Shown here piece by piece: positions 9,146-64,000 of a stretch of 64,000 nucleotides of DNA. A model generated the notes under the pieces. That model was given only the letters and a program-made list of their open reading frames with translations. It ran no database searches and was not told where the DNA came from. Origin of the DNA: Tridacna crocea (Eukaryota; Mollusca; Bivalvia; Cardiida; Cardiidae); assembly GCA_943736015.1 (NCBI GenBank), contig OX031060.1, positions 5,965,501-6,029,500 of the forward strand. Reading direction: 5' to 3'. The translations under genes were made by a program, and so were the position numbers. Numbering within the stretch: position 1 is the stretch's first letter; the number at the start of each line of letters is the position of its first letter.

Positions 9146-9400
9146 TTGTTACGGGAGACCACTCTTTCATGCATGGCTTTATCCCCGGCTTTATCCCCGA
9201 TTTAAATACAATACCTACCAACTGCATTTTGGAGAATTCTTTTTAGCTCAGTGGTCATGGTGTTGGCCTTTCGTCCGGGCTTTTTAAGTTTACATTCTGC
9301 ACGGTTCCCGGTCCCCTGTATTTCTGCTATGCACTTGTTCATTTGTTTTCTCCCTTTCAACCCCCCATCCCTTGACAGAAGGTCTTTAAAACAAAAAAAA
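9146..9400 (+). mobile_element. SINE S-b with empty TTAA site
   Basis: Flank TTACGGGAGACCACT and CAACTGC precede a tRNA-like head TAGCTCAGTGGTCATGGTG with GCCTTTCGTCCGGGC, then CCCTGTATTTCTGCTATGCA. The TTAA at 9202-9205 is intact here. The two other S-b copies (15925, 16490) carry a MITE at exactly this TTAA. Confidence 0.8.
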
Positions 9401-9739
9401 AAAACAAAAAAAAAGATCATGGTAAAGGCTTCAGCTGTCAAATTTCTTTTCCATATATCTGTATTATTTTATGTTTTGCCTAGTGTATTTTTTTCCTATT
9501 TTTAACCGAACTACATAAGTTATAATGCCCGAAGACTACAGATGTTCTATAATGCTTACCAAGAGGAAAGGTAACACCCGAATAAACCCGTATGTTGAAC
9601 ACTGTAAAAGCAAAAAGATTAACTGTTTCCAGCTTCATTTCATTGAAACAGTTTTGCGATTATGGTTTTTTACGGCCGATAAATGTATCATGAAAATGTA
9701 ATCAACCGCCAATTAGCGCAAGGATACATCTTCACAATC
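9401..9739. other. Upstream spacer of Prdm13
   Basis: A-rich tract at 9391-9415, otherwise nothing recognised. Confidence 0.5.
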
Positions 9740-9945
9740 TAAAGTCCTTGACGCATGCGCGTGTCGTCGATTGCTTCCGTCTGAATATCTGAATGGAACG
9801 CGTCGCTTAAATCGACGGAAAAACCAAATAGAAACACGTGCTTCGGATCACAGATGGGGGCTGATCCAAATTTTCTCACATTATTTGCTGAGGGCCCTAT
9901 ATAAACTTTGAAAGTGATTTCTTGGTGTCCAGAGTAATCCCTTTA
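9740..9945 (+). promoter_or_regulatory. Candidate Prdm13 core promoter
   Basis: TATATAAA lies at 9898-9905, in position to start transcription near 9928-9938 and leave a 5' UTR of about 210 bases. Upstream are an NRF1-like GCATGCGC (9753-9760) and two E-boxes, CACGTG (9835-9840) and CAGATG (9851-9856). This stretch is less AT-rich than its surroundings and free of the window's repeats. E-boxes are of interest because vertebrate Prdm13 is a target of the bHLH factor Ptf1a. That link here is inference only. Confidence 0.5.
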
Positions 9946-10146
9946 GAATACAAAAAGATATTGGCGGAGTTAATTCATACGAAGAAAAATGAATATGTAA
10001 CTTATTTGTATAAAAAAAAGCATATCGTAATTTTCATAGATAATTCTACAAAAAAAGAATAATTTAATATATAGTAACTCTGTAAGGACTTGACCGTCCC
10101 TTTTAGAACATTTATTTTGACCTTTATAAAACTATTTTGGAATCGT

Positions 10147-10299
10147 ATGATATCAATGGATTATGAGTCAGTTAACGTGGCGGTGGTTGCCGGTACGAAC
10201 CTCTCTAGAGGTACACTGTACGGCCCGCTGAAGCAGTTTGAATTCAGCCCGGTTTGGAGCAGTGAAGGTTTTCCAGGGAAGAACAGCAAAGTCATTGAG
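10147..10299 (+). CDS. prdm13: Prdm13 coding exon 1
   Basis: Encodes residues 1-51, the N-terminal strand region of the PR domain (SVNVAVVAGTNLSRGTLYGP). Donor GAG|GTAACA at 10300, phase 0. A weak acceptor-like CCCTTTTAG ends at 10106, so an upstream exon joined there cannot be excluded, though ATG 10147 gives a length like other PRDM13 N-termini. Confidence 0.82.
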
Positions 10300-10763
10300 G
10301 TAACACGTACTATCATCTTCCTTTCCCTCCTAATTCATTCTTTTTTTTCAGAACATGATTCTGTTTGTCCCATTGTTCTGTGATTGATTTTCCTATGTAT
10401 TCGGTTTTTTTTCATATATTCATTCAATATGCATAATTGTTTCTAATATTTTATGGTCATACGATCAAATTTTGTAATACAGTTAACACTTTCCCAAACG
10501 ATAAAATTTTAGCTTGTCTAAATTATAAACATTTGCACTTTTGCAAAAGACAATTTTAGTATGGCTCAAACGGTGAAGGCTTTCTTTGATAGAGTAGAAA
10601 ACATTGTGGGAAAAGTAGAAAATGCTCGTTACGAGCATTTTCTTCTTTTCCCACAATGTTTTCAAAAGGCTCCTTTTTTAGGAGCGTCAAAAGTCGGCAT
10701 TGTGTGGTAAAGGGTTAAAGAATCACATTGAGAGAGAGAGAGAGAGAGAGACAGAGAGAGACA

Positions 10764-10797
<34 letters not shown>

Positions 10798-11225
10798 CAG
10801 AGAGAGAGAGACAGAGAGAGAGAAACAGAGACAGAGAGGCAGACAGACAGACAGACAGACAGGGTATTTTATAGATCCATAATAATCATTATGTGATAAT
10901 TTGCTTCTTGTAATGCATTAGGGAAATGCATTAAGCCGAGCCCACCAGCTTAGTCAGAACGATTCAGGCTTGAACCAGTGGGTCGCTGGTTGGATTTCCA
11001 GCTCGGTAAACCTTTCTCCATGGATCAATATTAATAATTTTGCCGGATACTTCCTCTCCTACTGATAAGCATTGTTTCAGCAATGCTATTTGGGAGAGAT
11101 TGGAGCTCTTGTAAGAAAACTCAAGGAATGAGTGGAAAGGTCAACTGGCTGCTGTGGTATAACTGATGATATTGTAAATCATTGTAAGAATAGCAGCATC
11201 ACGCATGCTAGCAAGAAAGCGAGCA

Positions 11226-11273
<48 letters not shown>

Positions 11274-11290
11274 ATGAAAGAAGAAATGGA

Positions 11291-11322
<32 letters not shown>

Positions 11323-13743
11323 AACATACACACATACATACATACATACATACATACATAATTTTATGCATATACGCACGTACGTACGTATGTTGAAGAT
11401 AAATCAAGCCAGCAAGCGAGCGAACAAACAATCAAACAAACAAACAAACAAACATATATCCAGTAGCAAATTCACCAATAGCAACATGAATCGACTCAGA
11501 TCAGCCTGTGTGGAATGCACAGGCTGATCTGAGTCGATACATTTTGAAGATGCATTCAGTCCTTTTTTTCACATGGCATTACTTATATTTACTACTATGG
11601 TTAAGAAAAGGCATGTATTTCACAGGCAAGCAAATGCTGTTTTTCTCGCATTTTTTTACCTCTAACTTTCCAAAGCGGTAAGTTCATAGGTTCATAATTC
11701 TATACCACCATCGAAAAGAAAGTCTGTCGCACTTCAAACGGATCTGCATGTTTACATTCAATAGACAAATTAATTGTAACTTTACATGAATCTTTATCTG
11801 TAACAACAGTCTGCCGGTCATCAAATATTTAGACTGGTCACTGCTGTTTAAACAATGGTCAACAGAAAAAAGAGGTGACCATCGAAAATAACTCTTAGCT
11901 ATAAATCTATTATTGGACCAGGTAAATTTAGTACCTAAAATCCCAGTAGCGGCCAAAAGTAAACCGTTGAATGAGGTAGTAACTCGTTACCAAACGACAA
12001 TATGTTAGGCTTGTCCAAACCGAAAGCATAAATTATGCAGACAACAAAATAAAAGCGACTGAAAATTTGATTTTTTTTGTAAGGTGTAGAAAACATTGTA
12101 GGAAAAGGAGCAAGTGCTAGTTACCAGCATTTTCTCCTTTTCCCACAATGTTTTATAAAGGCTTTTTACTAAGGTTTGTCAAAAGTTGGGATTGTGTGGT
12201 AATGGGTTAACCTATATCCTGCTATAAATAACTAAAAGATATTTCTAATTCGATGGTAAAAATCCAAATATATCTATGTCTATTTAAAAGTTATGTTAGG
12301 GGGATAATTTTTTTTCGAATCGGACAGTGTAGAGGTCAGATTGCACTTTCTGTGCACTCTGATCTTGGTCTACATTATCCACAAAAGGTCATTGATTCGC
12401 GCTTAGAAGTCTAAGGGTTAAGATTTTTTGAATTAAACAAAAATGCTATTTATAAGTATGGATTTTTTGTGTGTAGATGATATGTTATTGTAGGGTTGGG
12501 CTAAGGCGCTTTCTTTAATATGTCGTCTACGAAATGTTTTCAGTTTGGTTGAGGGCAACATTTTTTTTTGTTATCTCTAGAGTTAAACTCGTGCTTATTC
12601 GTGTATGTGCCTAGCGTTTAGGAGCTTCTCTGCTGCAACCTTTTTCTTTTCTTTTCGAAACGATGTAGCGTTTGATTGTAATGTTTTGCAATGACATACC
12701 AGTAATTCACGGATTAGGATGTTGCAGAACAAACGAGAACTGTCGTTAAAAAGAAGTGTGGTGTTAACTTCCCAGCAAATAGGCATGATGAACATTTGTA
12801 TTTTCTTAACTAATCACAAATTTCTTCTCATTCTTTTATCTTAATCAGTACCAAAAAATTTGGTCAAAAGATAGCATTTTCAGCTATACCGAAAAAAGCA
12901 AACATACCATATTAAAATTAACCCTTTCCCAATCATGCCCTGGCTTTTACGTGTCTGCCGTAAAAGTCTTTTGAAAACACTGTGGGAAAAGGAGAAATTG
13001 CTCGTAACGACCAATTTCTCCTTTTCCCACAGTGTTTTCTGCCCTTTTCAAGGATTTTCTGCCATTTTCTCCAAATCTAAAATTGTCATCTGCAAAATCT
13101 TTCGGTTTGGAAGGGTCCAAAATTTATCGTTTGGGAAAGGGTGAACTAAATTTAGGTGTCCAAAAAAATCAAGACAATTATTGCATAATTATTATAACTT
13201 TGTCATTCCAGGTAACTGCGAAGAATGGACAACTGTGCACTAAAACAAAGCTATCATGGATACAGTTTATTCGGTCATCACGTGACATATACGAACAGAA
13301 TATCGAAGCTGTAAAGTCACGTGACGATGGTAGTGTCTTCCTCCGTGTGACAAGAAACTTAACAAGAGGGGAACTACTTTGTGGATGGTATGAAGAAAGC
13401 TATGCGAGAGAATTAAATGTTCCTTATTTGACCCTTGAAAATATCAAAGGTAAGTCAGTCCGCAAACCGTAAGAAAATATTCTTTGCCAAACTATCCCGT
13501 TGTCTGTGACACCGACGTAGGATGTTTTTGGAAGTATCAAGAAATCGGGTAAATGCAAGTTAAAGCATTTTCCTTCACATTCTTTTTATTTTTTCACAGA
13601 CAATGTTTACCAACAAACACACATTTAGCTCTGCCAAACGATACATTTTAGACTTCCCCGAATTGAGAGCGTCTGCAGACGACGGATTCGAAAGTAATAC
13701 AAATAAGCTGAAGTTCTTTGACAGGGTAGAAACTATTTAAGAC

Positions 13744-13798
<55 letters not shown>

Positions 13799-15445
13799 TC
13801 ACCAGCATTTTCTCCTTTTCCACACGTACTCTTGTTCAGTGTCGTTTAAACCGAGGTTTTGTTGTAAAACAGAGCATGACGCGTCTATATCACACTTTTA
13901 AAATCATCAATTTTTTTTTTTTAATATGAATGAAAATCGATTTATGTTCAGTGATGAGATTTGAATCAGCTAAACGAGCAAGCATAGTGTTATTTCGAGA
14001 GTGTATTGGCCATGATATTTCATACAATGGCGGACAGTCGAGGATCCAGTTGCACATTCTGAGCAGTATGATATATATCTAATGTCCGCAAAAGGCAGTC
14101 TTATCATGTTTGATCAACATTGTTTCAAATGATTTAATAAAGTAAACATGAAGCTATACATTTAAGTATGTATTTGATTTTTTGTATTTACTTGAAATAA
14201 TATAGAGGATAAACTGGTTTTGTGGGATAATAAACTGGTTTTGTGTGATAATAAAAGTCTGTCACTCGAATAGCGGGAGATGCGGCTTAAAAAAAAACCG
14301 AGTCTTTCAAAAGCATAAAACCACATTCTCGTGACAGATTTTCCATGTTACACACAACCAGTTAATTATCCTAATTATTATATATCTAATTCGACCTGTT
14401 TTATTCTAATAATTATCAAGAATGGTATAATATGAGCAATGTGGAAAAAAGTAGTTCCGGTAAATATTCTATAACTAGTGATCTTACCATATTTATCATC
14501 ACTAGTGATGTTATACACTGTGGACTCCCAGTAATTCAGTGATAGGAATGTAATAAAAATGATATTTCCAAATATGAAAAATCTGTTTCAGGATTACAAG
14601 ACTATCGCTGCCATCTATGTATCGAAAGGTTTGACTTTCCAAACCAACTGAAGGCACACATTATGTATAACTGCCCAGGAAACAGAACAGATCAGCTTGG
14701 AATCAAGTTTCAGTTTCCGTCCAGAATGTTTAGCCTTACTAAACAGACAGTTAATACATTTACTGAAAAGCCGAATATTGAACCAACTCTTTTCTCAGAA
14801 GGTATGTCAATGGCACCTGCTTTGACTCATACCAAGAAACAAGAGTACAGTGGTAACTGGATTGAACCGAACTACCCATATTTGACTTCCGTGAGTTGCA
14901 AATTATCATATAAAATTAATTCGAACGCTTTTTCTGACCCATGTCAATTTGGAGTGAGCCTTGCGCTACAGCCAAAGGTCGGAGTGATACACAAGCATAG
15001 ACACGTGACTTCGATGAAAGAAAATAGTCCGAAAGAAGTCCTTCCATATAAGAATGGAAAACAGGCGAAGAAAGATTCGGTAACACACGAAGCAGAACCG
15101 CTGGACATTTTACACAGATCGTTTATAGAATTCTCGACAAAACGAGGTCATTTGTGTGTTTATTGTGGAAAGTTCTATTCGAGAAAGTACGGTTTAAAAA
15201 TCCATTTACGGACACACACGGGATATAAGCCTCTGAAGTGTCGAATATGTTCTCGAGCTTTCGGGGACCCAAGCAATCTGAATAAACATATTCGACTGCA
15301 TGATGGCGGAGGCACGCCATATCGATGTCACCACTGTGGGAAACTTCTCGTTCGCAGACGAGATCTCGTCAGGCATTTGAAATCTCGTCATCCAAAAGAA
15401 AAAGAGCCATTCTGTGACAAAAAGGAGCTCAATACATCTAGGTGA
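10147..15445 (+). CDS. prdm13: PR/SET-domain zinc-finger protein, Prdm13 orthologue (spliced)
   Basis: Join of 10147-10299, 13212-13449 and 14592-15445; 414 residues. Seen: PR domain about residues 8-118, with W67-I68 and G109-W110-Y111 of the SET core; C2HC-like finger at C137, C140, H153, C158; a 155-residue low-similarity linker; C2H2 fingers at C319/C322/H335/H339, C347/C350/H363/H367 and C376/C379/H392/H397. The run SRKYGLKIH, THTGYKPLKC, GDPSNLNKHIRLH and LVRRRDL matches vertebrate PRDM13 as I remember it, and the one-plus-three finger layout is that family's. Known role in vertebrates: nuclear transcription regulator fixing inhibitory neuron fate in spinal cord and retina, interacting with bHLH factors. 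Vertebrate proteins are near 700 residues, so this one has a shorter linker. Both introns have GT-AG borders and keep frame (phases 0 and 1). Start at ATG 10147; ATG 10156 is an alternative. An in-frame TAA at 10075 closes the frame upstream. Confidence 0.9.
10483..10718 (+). mobile_element. PB-A MITE in Prdm13 intron 1
   Basis: TTAACACTTTCCCAAACGAT to GTGGTAAAGGGTTAA. The hairpin apex is GCTCGTTACGAGC instead of GCTGGTTACCAGC, a paired change in both arms. Confidence 0.93.
10728..10862. repeat. (GA)n/(GACA)n microsatellite
   Basis: GAGA units with interspersed CAGAGA, ending in (GACA)5. It begins ten bases after the PB-A copy, in intron 1. Confidence 0.95.
10936..11130 (+). mobile_element. 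tRNA-headed SINE in intron 1
   Basis: AGCCCACCAGCTTAGTCAG and GTCGCTGGTTGGATTTCCAG form a diverged tRNA-like head, followed by CTTTCTCCATGGATC body sequence. Confidence 0.5.
11220..11452. repeat. (AAAG)n, (ACAT)n, (ACGT)n and (CAAA)n compound array
   Basis: AAAG units to about 11321, then CATA repeats to 11360, three ACGT units near 11378-11390, and CAAA units to 11452. Open frames over it are artefacts. Confidence 0.95.
11486..11543. repeat. Fold-back TCGACTCAGATCAGCCTGTG
   Basis: A near-perfect 58-bp palindrome around GGAATGC, with the GATCAGCCTG motif shared with the R family at 22331 and 38553. Confidence 0.85.
11979..12210 (+). mobile_element. PB-A MITE in intron 1
   Basis: Left end AGTAACTCGTTACCAAACGA (first bases mutated), right end GTGGTAATGGGTTAA. 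The hairpin is imperfect (CAAGTGCTAG vs CCAGCATTTTC). The right TTAA is shared with the next element. Confidence 0.9.
12207..12421 (-). mobile_element. G-family MITE in intron 1
   Basis: TTAACCTATATCCTGC to AGTCTAAGGGTTAA. Hairpin core at about 12321-12392. Reverse copy of the element at 36908-37120. Shares TTAA 12207-12210 with the PB-A copy on its left. Confidence 0.85.
12422..12917. other. Intron 1 sequence
   Basis: No repeat family or conserved-looking block recognised. Confidence 0.5.
12918..13145 (-). mobile_element. PB-C MITE, 66 bp upstream of exon 2
   Basis: TTAACCCTTTCCCAATCATG to TTTGGGAAAGGGTGAA. Hairpin arms AAAACACTGTGGGAAAAGG with apex TTGCTCGTAACGACCAA. Its CATGCCCTGGCTTTTACGTG is the unoccupied version of the site filled by an N element at 34464. 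Confidence 0.93.
13212..13449 (+). CDS. prdm13: Prdm13 coding exon 2
   Basis: Encodes residues 52-130 plus one base: the SET core with LSWIQFIRSS and GELLCGWYEESYARELNVP. Acceptor TGTCATTCCAG|GT at 13211/13212 and a perfect donor G|GTAAGT at 13450 (phase 1). A copy of GTAAC starts both the intron 1 donor and this exon, so the splice point is defined by reading frame and AG position. Confidence 0.93.
13626..13873 (+). mobile_element. PB-A MITE with GA expansion in its hairpin (intron 2)
   Basis: Left arm CTGCCAAACGATACATTTTA and GTCTGCAGACGAC, right half ACCAGCATTTTCTCCTTTTC. The left hairpin arm is replaced by the GA run at 13746-13794. Confidence 0.8.
13746..13794. repeat. (GA)n microsatellite
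   Basis: About 24 GA units, sitting where the GGAGAAAATG arm of a PB-A hairpin should be. Confidence 0.95.
14031..14098. mobile_element. G-family hairpin core, decayed
   Basis: GGCGGACAGTCGAGGATCCA with CTAATGTCCGCAAAAGG at the other side. Many mismatches. Confidence 0.55.
14198..14380. repeat. Fold-back element in intron 2
   Basis: GAGGATAAACTGGTT at the left pairs with AACCAGTTAATTATCC at the right, and CTGTCACTCGA with TCTCGTGACAG inside. The ends resemble those of the hairpin at 63584-63737. Confidence 0.6.
14592..15445 (+). CDS. prdm13: Prdm13 coding exon 3 (terminal)
   Basis: Acceptor CTGTTTCAG|GA at 14591/14592; encodes residues 131-414 and the TGA at 15443. Holds all four zinc fingers. 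The post-PR finger (C137-C140-H153-C158) keeps an H-x4-C ending rather than H-x3-H. The last three fingers are spaced by TGYKPLK and DGGGTPYR linkers. Confidence 0.95.
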
Positions 15446-15815
15446 TCCATTATACCACGCGAGTCATCTCATAAACATAGATAAGTCAAGTCTATTTTGT
15501 TATACTGCAAAGAAATGTCTCCTGATATGATTGGATAATATGCCCCGAACATGTATATCAAGTACACTGGCAAAACCAACGTACAAGGAGTTTCCCTTTC
15601 GGGAGCCCCGTATACATGTACATGAATACACTTTCGACACAACATCCAAAATGGCGGCATCGATCAAGATTAAGATTCAGATTATGCAGGTTTTAGTACG
15701 TATTACCAAGTTTTCAGTGACGTTATTTTTTAAACCAAAAGACATGTTAGATTTGCTTAACAAACGTTGGAACTGTAAAATTTTGCCATAAAATAAATTC
15801 GTTGTACCATCAGGT
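15446..15815 (+). other. Probable Prdm13 3' UTR
   Basis: Repeat-free stretch from the stop to just past the AATAAA at 15792. The true end is not visible from sequence. Confidence 0.5.
15792..15797 (+). terminator. Polyadenylation signal AATAAA
   Basis: Canonical hexamer 347 bases after the stop codon, with GT-rich TTCGTTGTACC following. Confidence 0.5.
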
Positions 15816-15924
15816 GGCAGGGGACTTGGAAACTTATTCACGGCTGTGGTAAATCCTGTTGCCACGTCACCTTCGGCTCGGGGAGAGATAAAAAAAACCC
15901 TTTATATCTGTAGAGAAAGTAGTC

Positions 15925-16395
15925 ATGTTTGTCTAATCAACCAGACGGCCCCGCATCCCATACTCTTACAAATGAAGCCCGTACCAAAGAAATAAATGAA
16001 CAAATGCATAGCAGAAATACAGGGACTGGGTAGGATTCGAACCTAGAACGCCCGGACGAAAGGCCAACACCTTAACCACTGAGCTAAGGAGAATTCTCCC
16101 TCACGCAGTTGTTATAGGTATTTTATTTAACCCTTTCTCAAACGACAAACTTTTGGACTAGACCAAATTGGAAGCAATTGCAGACGACAATTCAACTCTT
16201 GCTGAAAAGATGATTTCTGTCTATGATAGGGTAGAAAACATTGTGGGAAAAGGAGAAAATGCTGGTTACCAGCATTTTCTCCTTTTCCCACAATGTTTTC
16301 CAAAGGCTACCATTCCAGACCCGTAAAAACCAGGGATTGTTTGGGAAAGGGTTAAACCGTGCTTGAAGCAGTGGTCTCCCGTAACACACTTCCTC
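15925..16395 (-). mobile_element. SINE S-b split by a PB-A MITE
   Basis: Minus-strand tRNA head at 16090-16030 (box A TAGCTCAGTGGTTAAGGTG, box B GGTTCGAATCCTACC), CAACTGCGTGAGG flank, and AGACCACTGC flank beyond 16356. The TTAA between these flanks is occupied by 16127-16355. Confidence 0.85.
16127..16355 (+). mobile_element. PB-A MITE, full-length reference copy (229 bp)
   Basis: TTAA at each end, then CCCTTTCTCAAACGAC and, inverted, TTTGGGAAAGGG. Left inner arm includes GCAGACGACAATTCAAC. The central 67-bp perfect hairpin is 16234-16300 with one-base apex in GCTGGTTACCAGC. The right arm has AGACCCGTAAAAACCAGGG. No open frame. TTAA duplication and CCC-starting ends are the hallmark of the piggyBac superfamily. 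Twelve copies in the window have exactly this length. A comparison of filled and empty sites is given under 9146-9400. Confidence 0.96.
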
Positions 16396-16489
16396 TTACA
16401 GTGATCATTTATTGAAGACTCAAATCCTTATTAGGCAGTAAGTCTATTATTAAGACAAGAAATGTCCGTTTTTTGTACAACAAATTGGA

Positions 16490-16945
16490 TTAATGATTCA
16501 ATGGCCAATTCCGAGCTCCAATCTTACGAACAAAGTCCGTCACAAGGAAACAAATGAACAAATGCATAGCAGAAATACAGGAACCGGGCAGGATTCAAAC
16601 CTAGAACGCCTTGACGAAAGGGCAACACCATAACTACTGCATAACGCAGTTGTTAGGCATTGTATTTAACCCTTTACCCCATAAGGCATTCCTATGGTAT
16701 CTCTAATTGACCCTAAATAATAGCAAAGATGAAGCCGTTTCTTATGTGTACATGACTCCTTTTGATAGCATAGAAAACATTGTGACAAAAGGTGAAATTG
16801 CTCGTCACGAGCAATTTCACCTTTTGCCACAATGTTTTGCAAAGGCTCCTACAAGCAATGTGTAGAAATGAGTATCTATGGAGTAAAGGGTTAAACCGGG
16901 CTGAACTGCAGCCGTGCATGAAGGAGTGGTCTCCCGTAACAAGAC
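16490..16945 (-). mobile_element. SINE S-b split by a PB-B MITE
   Basis: Same SINE as 15925-16395: ATGCATAGCAGAAATACAGG, head with GGATTCAAACCTAGAACGCC, CGCAGTTGTTAGGCATTG, and GGAGTGGTCTCCCGTAAC on the far side. The TTAA site is filled by 16666-16894. Confidence 0.85.
16666..16894 (+). mobile_element. PB-B MITE, full-length reference copy (229 bp)
   Basis: TTAACCCTTTACCCCATAAG to ATGGAGTAAAGGGTTAA. Inner arms differ from PB-A (GGTATCTCTAATTGACCC), but the hairpin plan is kept: AAAACATTGTGACAAAAGG with apex TTGCTCGTCACGAGCAA. Second copy at 31005-31233. Confidence 0.95.
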
Positions 16946-18207: not shown

Positions 18208-18436
18208 TTAACTCTTTACCACACGAGAAAATTTTAGACTTGTCCAAATTGAAAGCATTTGCAGACGACAAAATAAAGGTGACTGAAAAATTGAAATTTG
18301 TTTTGTGAAGGGTAGAAAATATTGTGGGAAAAGGAGAAAATGCTGGTAACCAGCATTTTCTCCTTTTCCCACAATGTTTTCTAAAGGCTTCTTTCTCAGG
18401 GGCGTCAAAAGTAGGGATTGTGTGGTAATGGGTTAA
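18208..18436 (+). mobile_element. PB-A MITE, full length
   Basis: TTAACTCTTTACCACACGAG to GTGTGGTAATGGGTTAA, 229 bp, perfect hairpin near 18316-18381. Inserted at the TTAA of a SINE 3' end. Confidence 0.95.
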
Positions 18437-22330: not shown

Positions 22331-22564
22331 GCAACACGTGAAAAGGGGCATTCGGACATTTGCGTAAAGTGTCGTCTCGGATCAGCCTACGCAGTTCGCG
22401 CAGGCTAATCCGGCAAAACTCTTTCCGTTTCTATGTAATTTTCTGTTTTGCGTTAGTCTACCGTAGCACAAAATCTAATGTGGTCGTAAAGTGCCGTCTC
22501 GGATTAGCCTGCGCGGACTGCGCAGGCTAATCCGAGACGACACTTTACGCAAATGTCCGAATGC
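22331..22564. mobile_element. R-family double fold-back element
   Basis: Outer inverted ends GCATTCGGACATTTGCGTAA and TTACGCAAATGTCCGAATGC. Each side holds its own hairpin around CCTGCGCGGACTGCGCAGG. Middle: TAATTTTCTGTTTTGCG. Confidence 0.88.
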
Positions 22565-23450: not shown

Positions 23451-23679
23451 TTAACCCTTTCCCAAACGACAAAGTTTTGGACTAGACCAAATTGAAAGCA
23501 TTTGCAGACGACAAGTAAACTCTTGCTGAGAAGATGATTTCTGTCTATGATAGGGTTGAAAACATTGTGGGAAAAGGAGAAAATGCTGGTTACCAGCATT
23601 TTCTCCTTTTCCCACAATGTTTTCAAAAGGCTACTATTCCAGACCCGTAAAAACCAGGGATTGTTTGGGAAACGGTTAA
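23451..23679 (+). mobile_element. PB-A MITE, full length
   Basis: Nearly identical to 16127-16355 (same GGACTAGACC and AGACCCGTAAAAACC), 229 bp, perfect hairpin. Looks like a recent amplification group with 53440-53668. Confidence 0.96.
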
Positions 23680-27080: not shown

Positions 27081-27279
27081 GGGCCTGTATTCACCAACCA
27101 TTCTTAAGAACGTTCTTGGTCTTATTCTCCAGAATTTTCTACATTTGTAAGTAACACAACTTCTGATTGGCTAAACCATTCGGTTTAGCCAATCAGAAGT
27201 TGTGTCACTTACAAATTTGGAAAACCGTGGAGAATAAGACTAAGAATATTCTCAAGAATGGTTGGTGAATACGGGCCCT
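27081..27279. mobile_element. N-family MITE, best copy
   Basis: Nearly the whole 199 bp is one inverted repeat: GGGCCTGTATTCACCAACC/GGTTGGTGAATACGGGCCC outside, AAGTAACACAACTTCTGATT inside, GGCTAAACCATTCGGTTTAG at the apex. No open frame. Confidence 0.92.
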
Positions 27280-28179: not shown

Positions 28180-29206
28180 GTAGTCACAAATTAGTTCCTT
28201 TCATCATTAAATCAAATTGGTTTTTAAGTAAAATAGATCTTTGATATAGACAAGGAGTATATGTAATTTAATGGTTTATAATCGGGTCAACCACCTCCAT
28301 AGTTGAAACATAGTTCTGTTAAAGATACCTATATTTTTTTTTTTGTTATTTTATTTTTTAGCCGAAAGTAAAAATGTGTTTAAATCAATAAATGGGAAAT
28401 ATCTATGACCCCAAAGAATCAGGGATATAATGATTCCTGTAAGAATGAAACGAAGTTTCAAATTTGTTATTTAGCATGACAAGATTACGTCAGATCAAAA
28501 CTGTAAACAATGGAAATATGTATCACTAGAGTCATTTACACACCCCTAAATAGAAAACTTGGGCTAAGCCTACTTTTGTTTCAACACGGGAAATGCTGCA
28601 CTTGTCTGTTTGTAGGATCATGGGTTCTATCGTTCTTTCTGCAGTCCAAGAACGCTAAATATTAATGTGCACATATGAAATTTACATTTCTACTATCTTT
28701 AAAATCATTCCACTACACTCTCGATATAAAATCCTGGCATCTTCGAGTAAATTGCTGTTGGATTCTTGTAACATAGATTAATGCAACGGTAGACAGGTAG
28801 TGTATCGAGGCTGGACTTGATTGCTAGAGCTCAACATGAATATGCAAGGTGAAGGTTGTACACAGTCACGTGACAAGCATCATGCAGTATCCTCGATTGA
28901 ACAGTGGGTAGGAGCCAAGTCCACATTTTTTATGCGTCGTAATCCTGTGCAGTCTCGCAATCAGCGGCTAGGTTTAGTATTTGTCATGAAGCCATAAAAA
29001 TGACTATCAATATAGTTAGATAAAGACGAATTGTTATATTGGACTAAAAATGAGTAAACGTGTCTCTTTAATTAAGGCCGGTACACAGAATAATAGAATA
29101 ATGTACTCGTAGTCTACGACACTCTCATATATTCAATAGGGGCACGCAGCAAGCTCTCGTGAGTAGTGACCCTTTGTCAAAGCATCCCGTATTTCATCAA
29201 AGTTCG
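28180..29206. other. Spacer
   Basis: No gene or repeat family recognised. Confidence 0.5.
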
Positions 29207-31004: not shown

Positions 31005-31233
31005 TTAACCCTTTACCCCATAAGGCATTTCTATGGTATCTCTAATTGACCCTAAATAACAGCAAGGATGAAGCTGTTTCTTATGTGTATATGACACCTT
31101 TTGATAGCATAGAAAACATTGTGACAAAAGGTGAAATTGCTCGTCACGAGCAATTTCACCTTTTGCCACAATGTTTTCCTAAGGCTCCTACTAGCGATGC
31201 GTAGAAATGAGTATCTATGGAGTAAAGGGTCAA
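31005..31233 (+). mobile_element. PB-B MITE, full length
   Basis: TTAACCCTTTACCCCATAAG to ATGGAGTAAAGGGTCAA, 229 bp, very close to 16666-16894 with scattered substitutions. Confidence 0.95.
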
Positions 31234-34437: not shown

Positions 34438-34864
34438 TTAACTCTTTCCCAAACAAGCCCTGGGCCCGTATTCACCAACAATTCTTGAGAATATTCTTAG
34501 TCTTATTCTCCAAGGTTTTCCAAATTTGTAATTAACACAACTTCTGATTGGCTAAACCGAATGGTTTAGCCAATCAGAAGTTGCGTTACTTACAAATGTA
34601 GAAAATTCTGGAGAATAAGACCAAGAACGTTCTTAAGAATGGTTGGTGAATACGGGCCCTGGTTTTTACGTGTCTGCAGTAAAAGTCTTTTGAAAACACT
34701 GTGGGAAAAGGAGAAATTGCTCGTAACGAGCAATTTCTCCTTTTCCCACAGAGTTTTCTACCCTTTTTGAGAACTTTCTGCCATTTTCTCAAAATCTAAA
34801 ATTGTCGTCTGCAAACTCTTTCAGTTTTGAAGAGTCCAAAATTTGTCGTTTGGGAAAGGGTTAA
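34438..34864 (-). mobile_element. PB-C MITE carrying a nested N element
   Basis: TTAACTCTTTCCCAAACAAG to TTTGGGAAAGGGTTAA. Without the 34464-34657 insert and one CCTGG, about 228 bp remain, the usual length. Hairpin AAAACACTGTGGGAAAAGG with apex TTGCTCGTAACGAGCAA. Confidence 0.95.
34464..34657. mobile_element. N-family MITE nested in PB-C
   Basis: GCCCGTATTCACCAAC to GTTGGTGAATACGGGC, flanked by CCTGG on both sides (34459-34463 and 34658-34662). The PB-C copy at 12918 has a single CCTGG at this point. Confidence 0.95.
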
Positions 34865-38552: not shown

Positions 38553-38806
38553 GCTTGCAAATGGACATTAAGACATTTGCGTAAAGTGTCGTCTCGGATC
38601 AGCCTGCGCAGTCCGCGCAGGCTAATCCGAGACGACACTTTACGACTACGTTATACTTAATGCTACTGCAGAGTTTTGCAAAACAGAAAATTATATAAAA
38701 ACGGAAAGTGTCGTCTCGGATTAGCCTGCGCGGACTGCGCAGGCTGATCCGAAACGACACTTTACGCAAATGTCGGAATGTCCCTTTTTGCGTGTTGCAG
38801 TCTATT
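38553..38806. mobile_element. R-family double fold-back element
   Basis: Two hairpins (38581-38644 and 38705-38768), each close to perfect around GCCTGCGCAGTCCGCGCAGG, joined by TTTTGCAAAACAGAAAA-type linker. Outer ends ACATTTGCGTAA/TTACGCAAATGT. Confidence 0.9.
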
Positions 38807-48136: not shown

Positions 48137-48193
48137 CCTATCAACCGACCGACTGACAAATCGACAAACCAACCAACTTACCGGCAAGCCGGT
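48137..48193. repeat. (CCAA)/(CCGA) array, left part
   Basis: CGACCGACTGACAAATCGAC-type units, cut off by the palindrome at 48194. Confidence 0.85.
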
Positions 48194-48397
48194 GTAATGC
48201 AGAAAAATGACCCTCCACTACAAAATCACCCATGGGTCATTTCACTACTTAGAGGAAAGACCCGGGTCATTATTCTACGTAGAGAAATAACCCCAGAGGG
48301 TCATTTCTCTACGTAGAATAATGACCCGGGTCATTCCTCTACGTAGTGATATGACCCATGGATCATTTTGTAGTGGAGGGTCATTTCACTGCATTAC
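48194..48397. repeat. 204-bp imperfect palindrome
   Basis: GTAATGCAGAAAAATGACCC pairs with GGGTCATTTCACTGCATTAC. Inside, GACCCGGGTCATTATTCTAC pairs with GTAGAATAATGACCCGGGTC, and each arm holds its own CCATGG- or CCCGGG-type sub-palindrome. Confidence 0.92.
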
Positions 48398-48399
48398 AT

Positions 48400-48804
48400 C
48401 GACCAACCAGCCAGCAAACCAACCAACCAACCAACCAGCCAAACCAGCCAACCAGCAAGCCGGACCACCAGTCGGCAAGCCAACCAACCAACCGACCAAC
48501 CGACCGACCGATCGATCGACCGACCGACCGACTGACTAACCAAACCAATCCAAATCAAACCAAACCAAACTAAACCAAACCAACTAACCAAACAATCAAT
48601 CAACCAACCAGCCAACCAAACCAACCAGCCAACCAGCAAGCCGGCCCACCAGTCAGCAAGCCAACCAACCAATTAACAAACTAGTCAACCAACCAACCGA
48701 CCGACCGACCCATCGACCAACCAACCAACCAACCAACCATATCAACCAACCAAACCAACTAACCAACCAAACCCAACCAACCAACCATCCAACCAACCAG
48801 TGTT
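48400..48804. repeat. (CCAA)n/(CCGA)n array
   Basis: About 400 bp of ACCA-type tetramers with a duplicated segment (CCAGCAAGCCGG at 48452 and 48632). Confidence 0.95.
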
Positions 48805-49201: not shown

Positions 49202-49397
49202 CGCCATATCTAGAAACTTAACGAATTCTGTTTTCTCCGTATCCCAATTAGGTCATTTTTTTATGATAATGTTATGCAAAGTTTTAGCAACTTTGATGCG
49301 GACAGAGCATTTTGAACTTGATCTACGCCATTCACAAAAGACGTTTATTAATGAGCTACTCGTATTGGTACCAAAAGAGATAAATAATTTTTCATAT

Positions 49398-49473
49398 CGT
49401 CGGTTTACTTCGAAAACCTCGTAACTACAGCTTGTTACAAGCTGTAGTTACGAGGTTTTTGAGGTACACCGAC
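49398..49473. mobile_element. P-family palindrome
   Basis: CGTCGGTTTACTTCGAAAAC pairs with GTTTTTGAGGTACACCGAC; the apex is AGCTTGTTACAAGCT. Confidence 0.93.
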
Positions 49474-49949
49474 CATATAATACATCCAAATTTCTTTTCC
49501 GAATGACAAAGTTCTGCAGATTTTATAGACAAACACATAGCACAGCCATATTGCCAGTGTTTGACACTGAGATAGTGTTTTCGTAGACTTAATTACAACT
49601 GAACCGTTCGTAATGAAATACATGCATTTAATATTTCAAAGATACAGCAGGGTCACTGTTTGGCGTCCCCTCACCCAACTCCGGCTCCCCTTATTGTTGT
49701 TATTTTTACCTGTTCACGTGACCTTTTGTCAACTATTTTGCTGTCAAAGGATGGAAGGGTTGAAAATAATTACATTCAATTAAGTGGAGAGATTTATGTA
49801 GCAACAAGTCATTAGTGATGACTGGGTCGATATTCTGAAATAATTACAACAAACACAATAGACTGGAAACAGATTATTTGAGTTATCTCCCTTTACATTT
49901 CGAAGGAAGTGTTAGGAAAGAAAAACCGTGGGAAGAGGTGAAAAGCTAG
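49474..49949. other. Spacer
   Basis: Nothing recognised. Confidence 0.5.
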
Positions 49950-51368: not shown

Positions 51369-51421
51369 TCCTAGTTTCGCCCACTTGAGGTCGAAAGGAC
51401 CAGTCAGCCATAAAGGGATAA

Positions 51422-51498
51422 CGTCGGTTTTCTTCAAAAACTTCGTAACTACAGCTTGTAACAAGCTGTAGTTACGACGTTTTTGAAGTAAACCGACG
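51422..51498. mobile_element. P-family palindrome, best copy
   Basis: 77 bp: CGTCGGTTTTCTTCAAAAAC pairs with GTTTTTGAAGTAAACCGACG and the apex is GCTTGTAACAAGC. Only a couple of mismatches. Confidence 0.95.
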
Positions 51499-51644
51499 AT
51501 AACCATCTTCCGAACATTTGTTAAAATATCCCTCAATGTACACTTCGCCTTCTAAATACTTTTTAATTAAAGGTAAAAAAAAAAAACTAGTTTAATTTCT
51601 ACCGCCTTTATAGCGTTTTTTAGCCGGATTTCTTCAACTAAACA

Positions 51645-53439: not shown

Positions 53440-53668
53440 TTAACCTTTTCCCAAACGACAAACTCTTGGACTAGACCAAATTGAAAGCATTTGCAGACGA
53501 CAATTCAACTCTTGCTGAAAAGATGATTTCTGTCTATGATAGGGTAGAAAACATTGTGGGAAAAGGAGAAAATGCTGGTTACCAGCATTTTCTCCTTTTC
53601 CCACAATGTTTTCAAAAGGCTACTATTCCAGACCCGTAAAAACCAGGGATTGTTTGGGAAAGGGTTAA
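53440..53668 (+). mobile_element. PB-A MITE, full length
   Basis: TTAACCTTTTCCCAAACGAC to TTTGGGAAAGGGTTAA, 229 bp; nearly identical to 16127 and 23451 copies. Confidence 0.96.
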
Positions 53669-55935: not shown

Positions 55936-56190
55936 AACACGTGAAATGGGACATTCGGACATCTGCGTAAAGTGTCGTCTCGGATCAGCCTGCGCAGTCC
56001 GCGCAGGCTAATCCGAGACGACACTTTCCGTTGTAATGCCATTTTCTGTTTTGTGCATGTCTACTGTAGCTCAAAATCTACTGTAGTCGTAAAGTGCCGT
56101 CTCGGATTAGCCTGCGCGGACTGCGCAGGCTAATCCGGGACGACACTTTACGCAGATGTCCGAATGACCCTTTTGGCGTGTTGCACTTCA
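55936..56190. mobile_element. R-family double fold-back element
   Basis: GCAACACGTGAAATGGGACA to CCCTTTTGGCGTGTTGC. Hairpins at 55970-56028 and 56089-56152, both near perfect. Confidence 0.92.
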
Positions 56191-58312: not shown

Positions 58313-58378
58313 CAGAACGACTCTATGTAGTGTGGAATTATAAAATGAGCCATGCTCTGTGAAAAGGGGGCTTAATAC

Positions 58379-58453
58379 ATCTGCGAAAAGTGTCGGCCAA
58401 GGTCAGCCTGCGCAGTCCGCGCAGGCTGACCTTGGCCGACACTTTTCGCCATT
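58379..58453. repeat. Perfect R-like palindrome
   Basis: GCGAAAAGTGTCGGCCAAGG pairs with CCTTGGCCGACACTTTTCGC around GCCTGCGCAGTCCGCGCAGGC. The sequence between apex and ends differs from R (GGCCAAGGTCA instead of TCTCGGATCA) in both arms. Confidence 0.95.
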
Positions 58454-58634
58454 GGTCAATTTTTCGTATGTCCAAGGACCATTTTACCTCATGCTCCAGT
58501 CTGTGGTTGAACCAAATAGATTCTATGGACCCATAATTATGTGATGACACGTTTATGTGATGAATCACGGAGATGCATTAAGCCTCCTTTTGCCAGAGCA
58601 TGGTTCAAATGATTTTGCAAGATGTTTTGGGATC

Positions 58635-63761: not shown

Positions 63762-64000
63762 ACGTTACTTTGGTCAAATCGAAAGCATTTGCCGACGACA
63801 AAATAAATATAGATCATGCCTTGCCTAAAGAGATCAAATGGTTGACCTGCATTTCGTTGGTTTACTTCGAAAATCTCGTAACTACAGCTTGTAACAAGCT
63901 GTAGTTAAGAGATTTTTTAAGGAAACCGACAATGTTCTCCTTTTTTCCAGCATTTTTTTTTCTAAAGGTCTCTCTTTCAGAGTCGTTAGAGTCCGGATTG
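63762..64000 (+). mobile_element. PB-A MITE split by a P palindrome, cut by window end
   Basis: GAAAGCATTTGCCGACGACA at the left, TTCTCCTTTTTTCCAGCA and AGAGTCGTTAGAGTCCGGAT at the right, with the P element at 63855-63930 between. Confidence 0.82.
63855..63930. mobile_element. P-family palindrome nested in PB-A
   Basis: CGTTGGTTTACTTCGAAAAT pairs with GATTTTTTAAGGAAACCGAC; apex GCTTGTAACAAGC. Confidence 0.92.

What the first reader, a model, noticed from the sequence alone, without database searches (positions are those of the whole stretch)
9146..16945. Filled and empty sites in one window show TTAA duplication by the PB MITEs
Three copies of SINE S-b are comparable. At 9146 the TTAA (9202-9205) is intact between the CCGATT and ATACAATACC flanks. 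In the copies at 15925 and 16490 the same point holds a PB-A (16127-16355) and a PB-B (16666-16894) element, each with TTAA on both sides. The two inserts are different subfamilies, so this TTAA was hit twice or one insert was replaced. TTAA duplication plus CCC-starting ends is the piggyBac signature (established); assignment to that superfamily is inference.
Basis: partly seen in the sequence, partly recalled or inferred. Interest (0 to 1): 0.8.

Follow-up and report, generated by a model that had tools for sequence, protein, structure and literature searches.

The report
piggyBac mini-transposons caught in a repeat
Comparing occupied and unoccupied copies of one repeat shows that small, palindrome-centred DNA transposons of a very abundant kind in this animal genome insert at TTAA and duplicate it, as piggyBac transposons do, and a piggyBac element with a related end is present in the same genome.

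Summary
Observation confirmed. The three S-b copies align on both sides of the point: copy 9146 has one TTAA; the other two hold 221-bp inserts of two subfamilies with TTAA on both sides. Of 18 further filled S-b sites fetched, 16 have both S-b halves, 15 with TTAA on both sides; 26 of 26 unfilled sites fetched have one TTAA.

"Hit twice or replaced": the two filled copies are neighbouring units of one tandem S-b pair, each hit once. Of 100 exact S-b sites listed, 11 are filled (95% interval 6-19%), against a rough 4-8% for any TTAA: no strong hotspot.

Superfamily: piggyBac is supported. A 7.2-kb element with an open piggyBac transposase frame, TTAA flanks and C(C/T)CATTACC ends shares subterminal sequence with one MITE end. 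No element with exact PB-A or PB-B ends was found.

Less ordinary: the MITE core is a 71-bp palindrome; its centre occurs at 342,056 genomic sites. It is identical between subfamilies whose left frames differ by 25%, and stem changes between subfamily consensuses are mirrored on both arms. Coral CMITEs are the nearest published parallel seen. "SINE" for S-b is unproven.

The parts
9146..9400 (+). S-b repeat copy, unfilled: leader, TTAA point, tRNA-like part, A-rich end
   Evidence: Profile match 9147-9342, E 3.5e-43; alignment
9202..9205 (+). single TTAA of the empty site
   Evidence: Sequence; aligned to both filled sites
15925..16400 (-). S-b copy (3' unit of the tandem pair) carrying PB-A
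   Evidence: Profile halves 15989-16130 and 16349-16387 on the minus strand
16127..16355 (+). PB-A MITE, 221 bp plus TTAA on both sides; TIR CCCTTTCYCAAAC
   Evidence: the 40 places scored, this copy included, are 96-100% identical
16232..16302 (.). palindromic core of PB-A
   Evidence: single-strand DNA fold -38 kcal/mol, z -14.9
16364..16537 (-). S-b spacer joining the two tandem units
   Evidence: Spacer profile match, E 2e-31
16490..16945 (-). S-b copy (5' unit of the tandem pair) carrying PB-B
   Evidence: Profile halves 16546-16669 and 16891-16941 on the minus strand
16666..16894 (+). PB-B MITE, 221 bp plus TTAA on both sides; TIR CCCTTTACYCCAT
   Evidence: B-type core centre at 28,481 genomic sites
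16771..16841 (.). palindromic core of PB-B (this copy has one unpaired stem position)
   Evidence: consensus comparison
23451..23679 (+). another complete PB-A copy in the window
53440..53668 (+). another complete PB-A copy in the window
31005..31233 (+). second PB-B copy (right flank TCAA)
18208..18436 (+). complete copy of the C/D MITE subfamily, CTCTTTACC..GGTAATGGG

Best explanation
PB-A and PB-B are non-autonomous piggyBac-superfamily MITEs of 221 bp. A piggyBac transposase made elsewhere in the genome cuts them out and pastes them into TTAA, which ends up on both sides. The S-b repeat carries a TTAA in its leader, and that TTAA is an ordinary target. In this window two neighbouring units of a tandem S-b pair were each hit once, by different subfamilies; a third, separate copy was not hit. 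Steps shown: TTAA duplication, hits at many loci by several subfamilies in both orientations, piggyBac transposases in the genome, one of them in an element whose right end resembles the C/D (clearly) and A (weakly) MITE right ends. Steps inferred: that this transposase family or a lost relative moved PB-A and PB-B, and that the shared palindromic core helps amplification.
For: Three-copy alignment. 16 of 18 further filled S-b sites with both S-b halves, 15 with TTAA on both sides; 26 of 26 unfilled sites with one TTAA. Scored against A, B and D consensuses, inserts of 14 filled sites (12 fetched plus the window's two) fall as A+ 4, A- 3, B+ 2, B- 3, D+ 2; margins are weak for L063 and L070 and small for L061, L071, L072. 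PB-A: 26 of 30 copies have TTAA on both sides, the other 4 differ by one base on one side; L006/L021 share a flank and L014/L025 have partly similar ones. 118 PF13843 matches. L047-type element: 7.2 kb, 99.96% identical between two copies; TTAA-CTCATTACC..GGTAATGGG-TTAA complete in 4 of 7 copies examined. Its 486-aa protein matches piggyBat 9c0f E 5.8e-40 and piggyBac 6x67 E 4.8e-36. C right end vs its right end: 19 of 26 positions beyond the first ten, 0 of 5,000 shuffles; A right end 14 of 26, P 0.0012; best of 12 autonomous ends for both.
Against: No autonomous element with the exact PB-A or PB-B TIR was found: at most 8 of 13 positions; four further transposase loci gave none, and most of the 118 matches were not followed to their ends. 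The A right-end match would not survive correction for 72 comparisons alone; PB-B ends match no autonomous end clearly, nor do the MITE left ends. MITE-frame matches inside L094 are nested copies, not its ends. Of 7 L047-type copies two have TTAA on one side only, and in one the left end was not found in the stretch taken. L064 and L114 lack a visible S-b 5' half.
Confidence: 0.93

Rival explanations
1. Kolobok-superfamily MITEs: same TTAA duplication, different transposase.
For: Kolobok also makes TTAA duplications and occurs in many animals including molluscs (passages of PMC9587614).
Against: Kolobok ends are 5'-RR..YY-3'; the subfamilies here have CC..GG or CT..AG ends. The autonomous element with matching subterminal sequence encodes a piggyBac transposase. 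Kolobok transposases were not searched in this genome.
Confidence: 0.03
2. A composite repeat: one S-b copy took a MITE once and the pair was then copied together, so the filled sites are not independent insertions. For the window: the tandem pair duplicated with an insert and one insert was later exchanged.
For: The two filled units are adjacent in a tandem pair; S-b units do occur in tandem.
Against: Filled sites on many contigs carry several subfamilies in both orientations. Most S-b copies are unfilled (89 of 100 listed, 63 of them judged only by the base before TTAA). PB-A and PB-B are only distantly related: left frame 39 of 88 positions, shuffle mean 23.6 and best 38, far beyond decay of one insert in place.
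Confidence: 0.03
3. The S-b TTAA is a preferred hotspot, so the double hit is more than chance.
For: Two of three S-b copies in the window are filled. Of 100 listed exact sites 11 are filled, somewhat above the background estimate.
Against: The 95% interval of 11 of 100 is 6-19% and overlaps the estimate of 4.4-8.5% for any TTAA, which counts only MITEs with a recognisable core and scales from this window. At most a mild preference, about one and a half to three times, is suggested.
Confidence: 0.12

Closest known systems
CMITEs of Acropora corals (PMC2872659; outline and abstract, Results part 1 of 2, and Discussion read)
   Same: piggyBac-type MITEs with TTAA duplication, TIRs such as CCCTTTCCC, several TIR families sharing an internal region more conserved than the ends, an empty/filled allele pair, autonomous piggyBac elements in the same genome.
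   Different: CMITEs are ~100 bp and estimated at ~1,600 copies; here 221 bp and 342,056 sites of the core centre. Here the conserved core is a near-perfect palindrome with mirrored changes. Whether the CMITE core is palindromic was not seen (figures are not held), and no sequence comparison was made.
piggyBac superfamily autonomous elements (solved transposases piggyBac 6x67, piggyBat 9c0f)
   Same: Homologous transposase in an element with TTAA flanks and C(C/T)C ends.
   Different: The MITEs encode nothing that was seen; the 7.2-kb partner has four subterminal copies of a CTTTTGACGCC-like motif, seen by eye, and carries nested MITEs.
Kolobok T2-MITEs (PMC6004289, listing only) and KolobokP (PMC9587614, passages)
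   Same: TTAA duplications in Kolobok; MITEs.
   Different: Ends RR..YY, other transposase.

Membership tests
piggyBac-superfamily MITE | TTAA target, duplicated on insertion | tested here: met
   Empty/filled comparison; 26 of 30 PB-A copies with TTAA on both sides
piggyBac-superfamily MITE | CC[C/T]T terminal motif in a short TIR | tested here: met
   PB-A CCCTTTCCCAAAC and PB-B CCCTTTACYCCAT; motif as given in PMC2872659. The sister C/D subfamily departs from it: right end CCCA, left end CTCT
piggyBac-superfamily MITE | autonomous piggyBac with matching ends in the genome | tested here: inconclusive
   Right-end match of C (weaker of A) to the L047-type element; no exact PB-A or PB-B partner
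piggyBac-superfamily MITE | small, homogeneous size | tested here: met
   65 of 106 core-bearing elements with TTAA flanks (one mismatch allowed in all) are exactly 221 bp
piggyBac-superfamily MITE | seamless excision by a piggyBac transposase | not testable with these tools
   Needs an excision assay
Kolobok | 5'-RR..YY-3' termini | tested here: not met
   Termini are CC..GG for PB-A and PB-B; rule from PMC9587614
tRNA-derived SINE (for S-b) | recognisable tRNA-related head | tested here: inconclusive
   Box A- and B-like stretches seen by eye; no ARAGORN hit in 33 loci, no Rfam tRNA match at E<=1 in the window stretch or 7 loci
tRNA-derived SINE (for S-b) | dispersed single copies with 3' tail and target duplications | tested here: inconclusive
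   Copies on many contigs, but a spacer joins units in the window and precedes or follows units in several loci; target duplications not tested

The most novel reading that the evidence does not exclude
The 71-bp palindrome is a working cis module of the MITE: source elements that keep its two arms complementary outbreed others, for example because the hairpin provokes copying of the donor site during excision repair and so turns cut-and-paste into net gain. The core, not the ends, is then what the subfamilies have in common and what carried the family to several hundred thousand copies.
Probability: 0.3. Interest if true: 0.72.

Novelty: new variant of a known kind. Interest (0 to 1): 0.45.

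Why it matters
The case gives within-genome proof of the insertion mechanism for a MITE group that, if each of the 342,056 core sites marks a 221-bp element, makes up about 7% of a 1.05-Gb animal genome. It offers a natural assay: one dispersed repeat with a fixed TTAA, filled or not. It also poses a testable question that coral CMITEs raised and left open: why is the inside of some piggyBac MITEs more conserved than their ends? Here the inside is a palindrome whose changes between subfamily consensuses are mirrored on both arms, while private changes in single copies accumulate about as fast in the core as in the frames.

Tried and rejected
Rfam at gathering score: nothing; at E<=1 mostly sub-threshold microRNA-type hairpin matches to the palindromes, on both strands, taken as a by-product of perfect pairing. 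Four more transposase loci searched for PB-A/PB-B ends: none; L109 belongs to the CCCTTTCAG family. Idea that L047-type elements carry MITEs as their ends: rejected, the MITE-frame matches inside L094 are nested. Idea that a tRNA-arm palindrome core (L105) is a second core family: rejected, the pattern occurs once in the genome. Molluscan haemocyanin domain as a test of the host's phylum: no match, and no control rang, so it says nothing. A first occupancy figure of 14 of 225 counted only two kinds of junction; reading the 11 sites with neither in the listed 100 raised it to 11 of 100, and I raised the odds of the hotspot rival for that. Papers: six searches listed, by title and start of abstract, no piggyBac MITE with a palindromic core; this speaks of those searches and that library only.
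Full report
What was checked. The three S-b copies were read and aligned. The unfilled copy at 9146 has one TTAA at 9202-9205. The other two carry 221-bp inserts with TTAA on both sides, 16127-16355 and 16666-16894. The halves on either side of the point are homologous in all three copies: upstream 60-bp alignment scores 47, 61 and 52 against best-of-500 shuffle scores of 24, 33 and 22.

Extension to the genome. The window lies in contig 5 of a 1.05-Gb assembly in 31 contigs. The S-b point with its TTAA occurs 1,540 times at <=1 mismatch, 0 in the backwards control. With exact matching, 211 sites have T before the TTAA and 14 have RGGG. The 100 exact sites printed divide into 83 with T, 6 with RGGG and 11 with neither, by comparing the lists. 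Fetched were all 13 RGGG sites other than the window's, 20 T sites picked by hand at roughly even steps from the printed list, and the 11 'neither' sites.

Filled sites. The 13 RGGG sites: 12 have the S-b leader on the far side of a 176-222-bp insert; L064 has none within 404 bp. Profile halves meet exactly at model positions 45-48, the TTAA, in 9 of these 12; L061 (47|45) and L071 (50|43) differ by a few positions, and the left match of L067 runs on to 58 although TTAA stands in place. The 11 'neither' sites: 5 are filled (L112-L116), 4 of them with leader, TTAA, a B or C/D MITE, and TTAA; L114 has no leader within 451 bp. Six are unfilled. In sum 16 of 18 fetched filled sites have both S-b halves, and 15 have TTAA on both sides (one, L066, with an extra base; L061 has TAAA on one side).

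Unfilled sites. All 20 fetched T sites and the 6 others show a single TTAA; 18 of the 20 T sites have the S-b leader, two (L078, L085) another sequence. The refuting case of two TTAA in an empty site did not occur. 'No TTAA' could not be tested because the pattern contains it.

Hit twice or replaced. S-b units are often joined by a spacer of about 150 bp. The spacer profile, built from L074, L075, L079 and L090, also matches nearly in full in L083, L087, L091 and L093 of the 33 S-b loci given, and in the window at 16364-16537 (E 2e-31). The two filled copies are therefore adjacent units of one tandem pair, and the simplest account is one hit in each. PB-A and PB-B are distantly related: left frame 39 of 88 positions identical, shuffle mean 23.6, best of 1,000 38; right 18 of 36, best 17. 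Neither is a decayed form of the other. Of the 100 listed sites 11 are filled (95% interval 5.6-18.8%), counting 63 unfetched T sites as unfilled. TTAA occurs 7.48 times per kb in the window, so about 7.85 million times genome-wide; 342,056 core sites give 4.4% occupancy, or 8.5% if scaled by the ratio of detectable to near-exact cores in the window, 64 to 33. The estimate is rough and counts only core-bearing MITEs. The S-b TTAA is thus an ordinary target or at most mildly preferred. Inserts of 14 filled sites, scored against A, B and D consensuses only, classify as A+ 4, A- 3, B+ 2, B- 3, D+ 2, with weak margins for L063 and L070 and small ones for L061, L071 and L072.

Superfamily. TTAA duplication is shared by piggyBac and Kolobok; Kolobok ends are RR..YY (passages read in PMC9587614). 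PB-A and PB-B have CC..GG ends. PB-A: 26 of 30 copies have TTAA on both sides, the other four differ by one base on one side. PF13843 (piggyBac transposase) gives 118 matches, many of them fragments. Autonomous elements with TTAA and matching TIRs were delimited for CCCTTTATATAC, CCCTAGTCATGC, CCCTTTCAG, CCCATTTATGCC and CCCTCTAGA families. A further family, L047-type, is 7.2 kb; two copies are 99.96% identical. Of seven copies examined, four have TTAA on both sides, two on one side only, and in one the left end was not found in the 401 bases taken. Its 486-aa protein matches PF13843 at 297 bits and the solved piggyBat and piggyBac transposases. Its right end matches the C-subfamily MITE right end at 19 of 26 positions beyond the first ten, 0 of 5,000 shuffles, and the A right end at 14 of 26 (P 0.0012). 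It is the best of 12 autonomous ends for both, but 72 comparisons were made, so the A match alone is not decisive. The MITE left ends and both PB-B ends match no autonomous end clearly. So the superfamily is well supported, a related autonomous element exists, and the direct driver of PB-A and PB-B is not identified.

The palindromic core. 106 TTAA-flanked elements (one mismatch allowed in all) were collected through the core; 65 are exactly 221 bp. Subfamily A is over-represented because 30 loci had been fetched by similarity to PB-A. The core is a 71-bp palindrome with arms of about 35 bp. Its 29-bp centre (<=1 mismatch) occurs at 342,056 sites, the B-type centre at 28,481, controls 0. The first number times 221 bp is 7.2% of the genome; not every site need be a whole element. 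The core consensus of A is identical to that of D/C (71 of 71) while left frames agree at 66 of 88. Between A and B, 8 of 10 core differences form 4 mirrored pairs, the rest being the centre base and one base outside the stem. Between A and a further subfamily (A2, 7 elements), 6 of 6 form 3 mirrored pairs; the A2 core was read by eye from the alignment.

Copy-level data. Across 48 window cores there are 48 mirrored double changes against about 7 expected by independence, 7 unmatched doubles and 179 one-sided changes. Across 146 cores from loci the figures are 119 against about 35, 58 and 809. Shared descent inflates the doubles, and frame-shifted copies add noise. Private changes per site in 23 C/D elements are 0.034 in the core and 0.030 and 0.028 in the frames. 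Mean divergence from consensus is lower in the core (0.068, frames 0.116 and 0.098; lower in 18 of 23, P 0.003). So recent private decay is alike in all parts and the conservation belongs mainly to older, shared differences, that is to source elements; choosing elements by core match biases against decayed cores. Possible causes: function of the dyad in transposition or amplification; hairpin-templated correction of arms; exchange of cores between frames. The data do not separate them.

Nearest known. Coral CMITEs have TTAA duplications, CCCTTTCCC-type ends, several TIR families around one conserved internal region, and an empty/filled allele pair (PMC2872659, outline and abstract, Results part 1, Discussion). 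The present group looks like the same phenomenon in another animal, on a far larger scale and with a palindromic core. A sequence relation to CMITEs was not tested. Six paper searches listed no palindrome-cored piggyBac MITE. Of two bivalve papers queried by term, PMC8905726 holds one piggyBac table row and no MITE or palindrom- term; PMC10294476 names piggyBac and MITEs in the passages shown, and palindromes were not asked there.

Verdict. The finding is real and the mechanism reading is right; as evidence of TTAA insertion it is textbook. The abundance and the mirrored core raise the interest moderately.

Noticed in passing
L105:132-313 (G000:C17, about 34143452-34143633): A PB-type MITE with D-subfamily ends whose inside is a different, near-perfect palindrome of about 102 bp centred on a tRNA T-arm-like GGTTCGAATCC (tRNA likeness by eye); the centre occurs once in the genome. 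Possibly a freshly made palindrome.
   Followed up: partly
window 22485-22549, 38580-38644, 55966-56030, 58378-58454; 1724-1807, 27135-27224, 34516-34605; 49392-49480, 51414-51506, 63865-63921: Other repeats in the window also centre on long palindromes of at least three sequence kinds, two of them apparently nested in PB MITEs (34516, 63865).
   Followed up: partly
window 48183-48408: A palindrome with arms of about 111 bp built of short repeats such as GGGTCATT and CTACGTAG; a similar array follows an S-b copy in L083.
   Followed up: no
window 13032-13472 and 14663-15445 (+): Exons of a PR-domain and C2H2 zinc-finger protein.
   Followed up: no
L094:2578-9771, L095: piggyBac element of 7.2 kb, 99.96% identical between two contigs, with MITEs nested inside that now travel with it, and four copies by eye of a CTTTTGACGCC-like motif at one end.
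   Followed up: partly
L074, L083, L091, L093 and window 16400-16420: A sequence like TCAATAAATGATGACTTTAA recurs just before the S-b leader; it is the end of the S-b spacer.
   Followed up: partly
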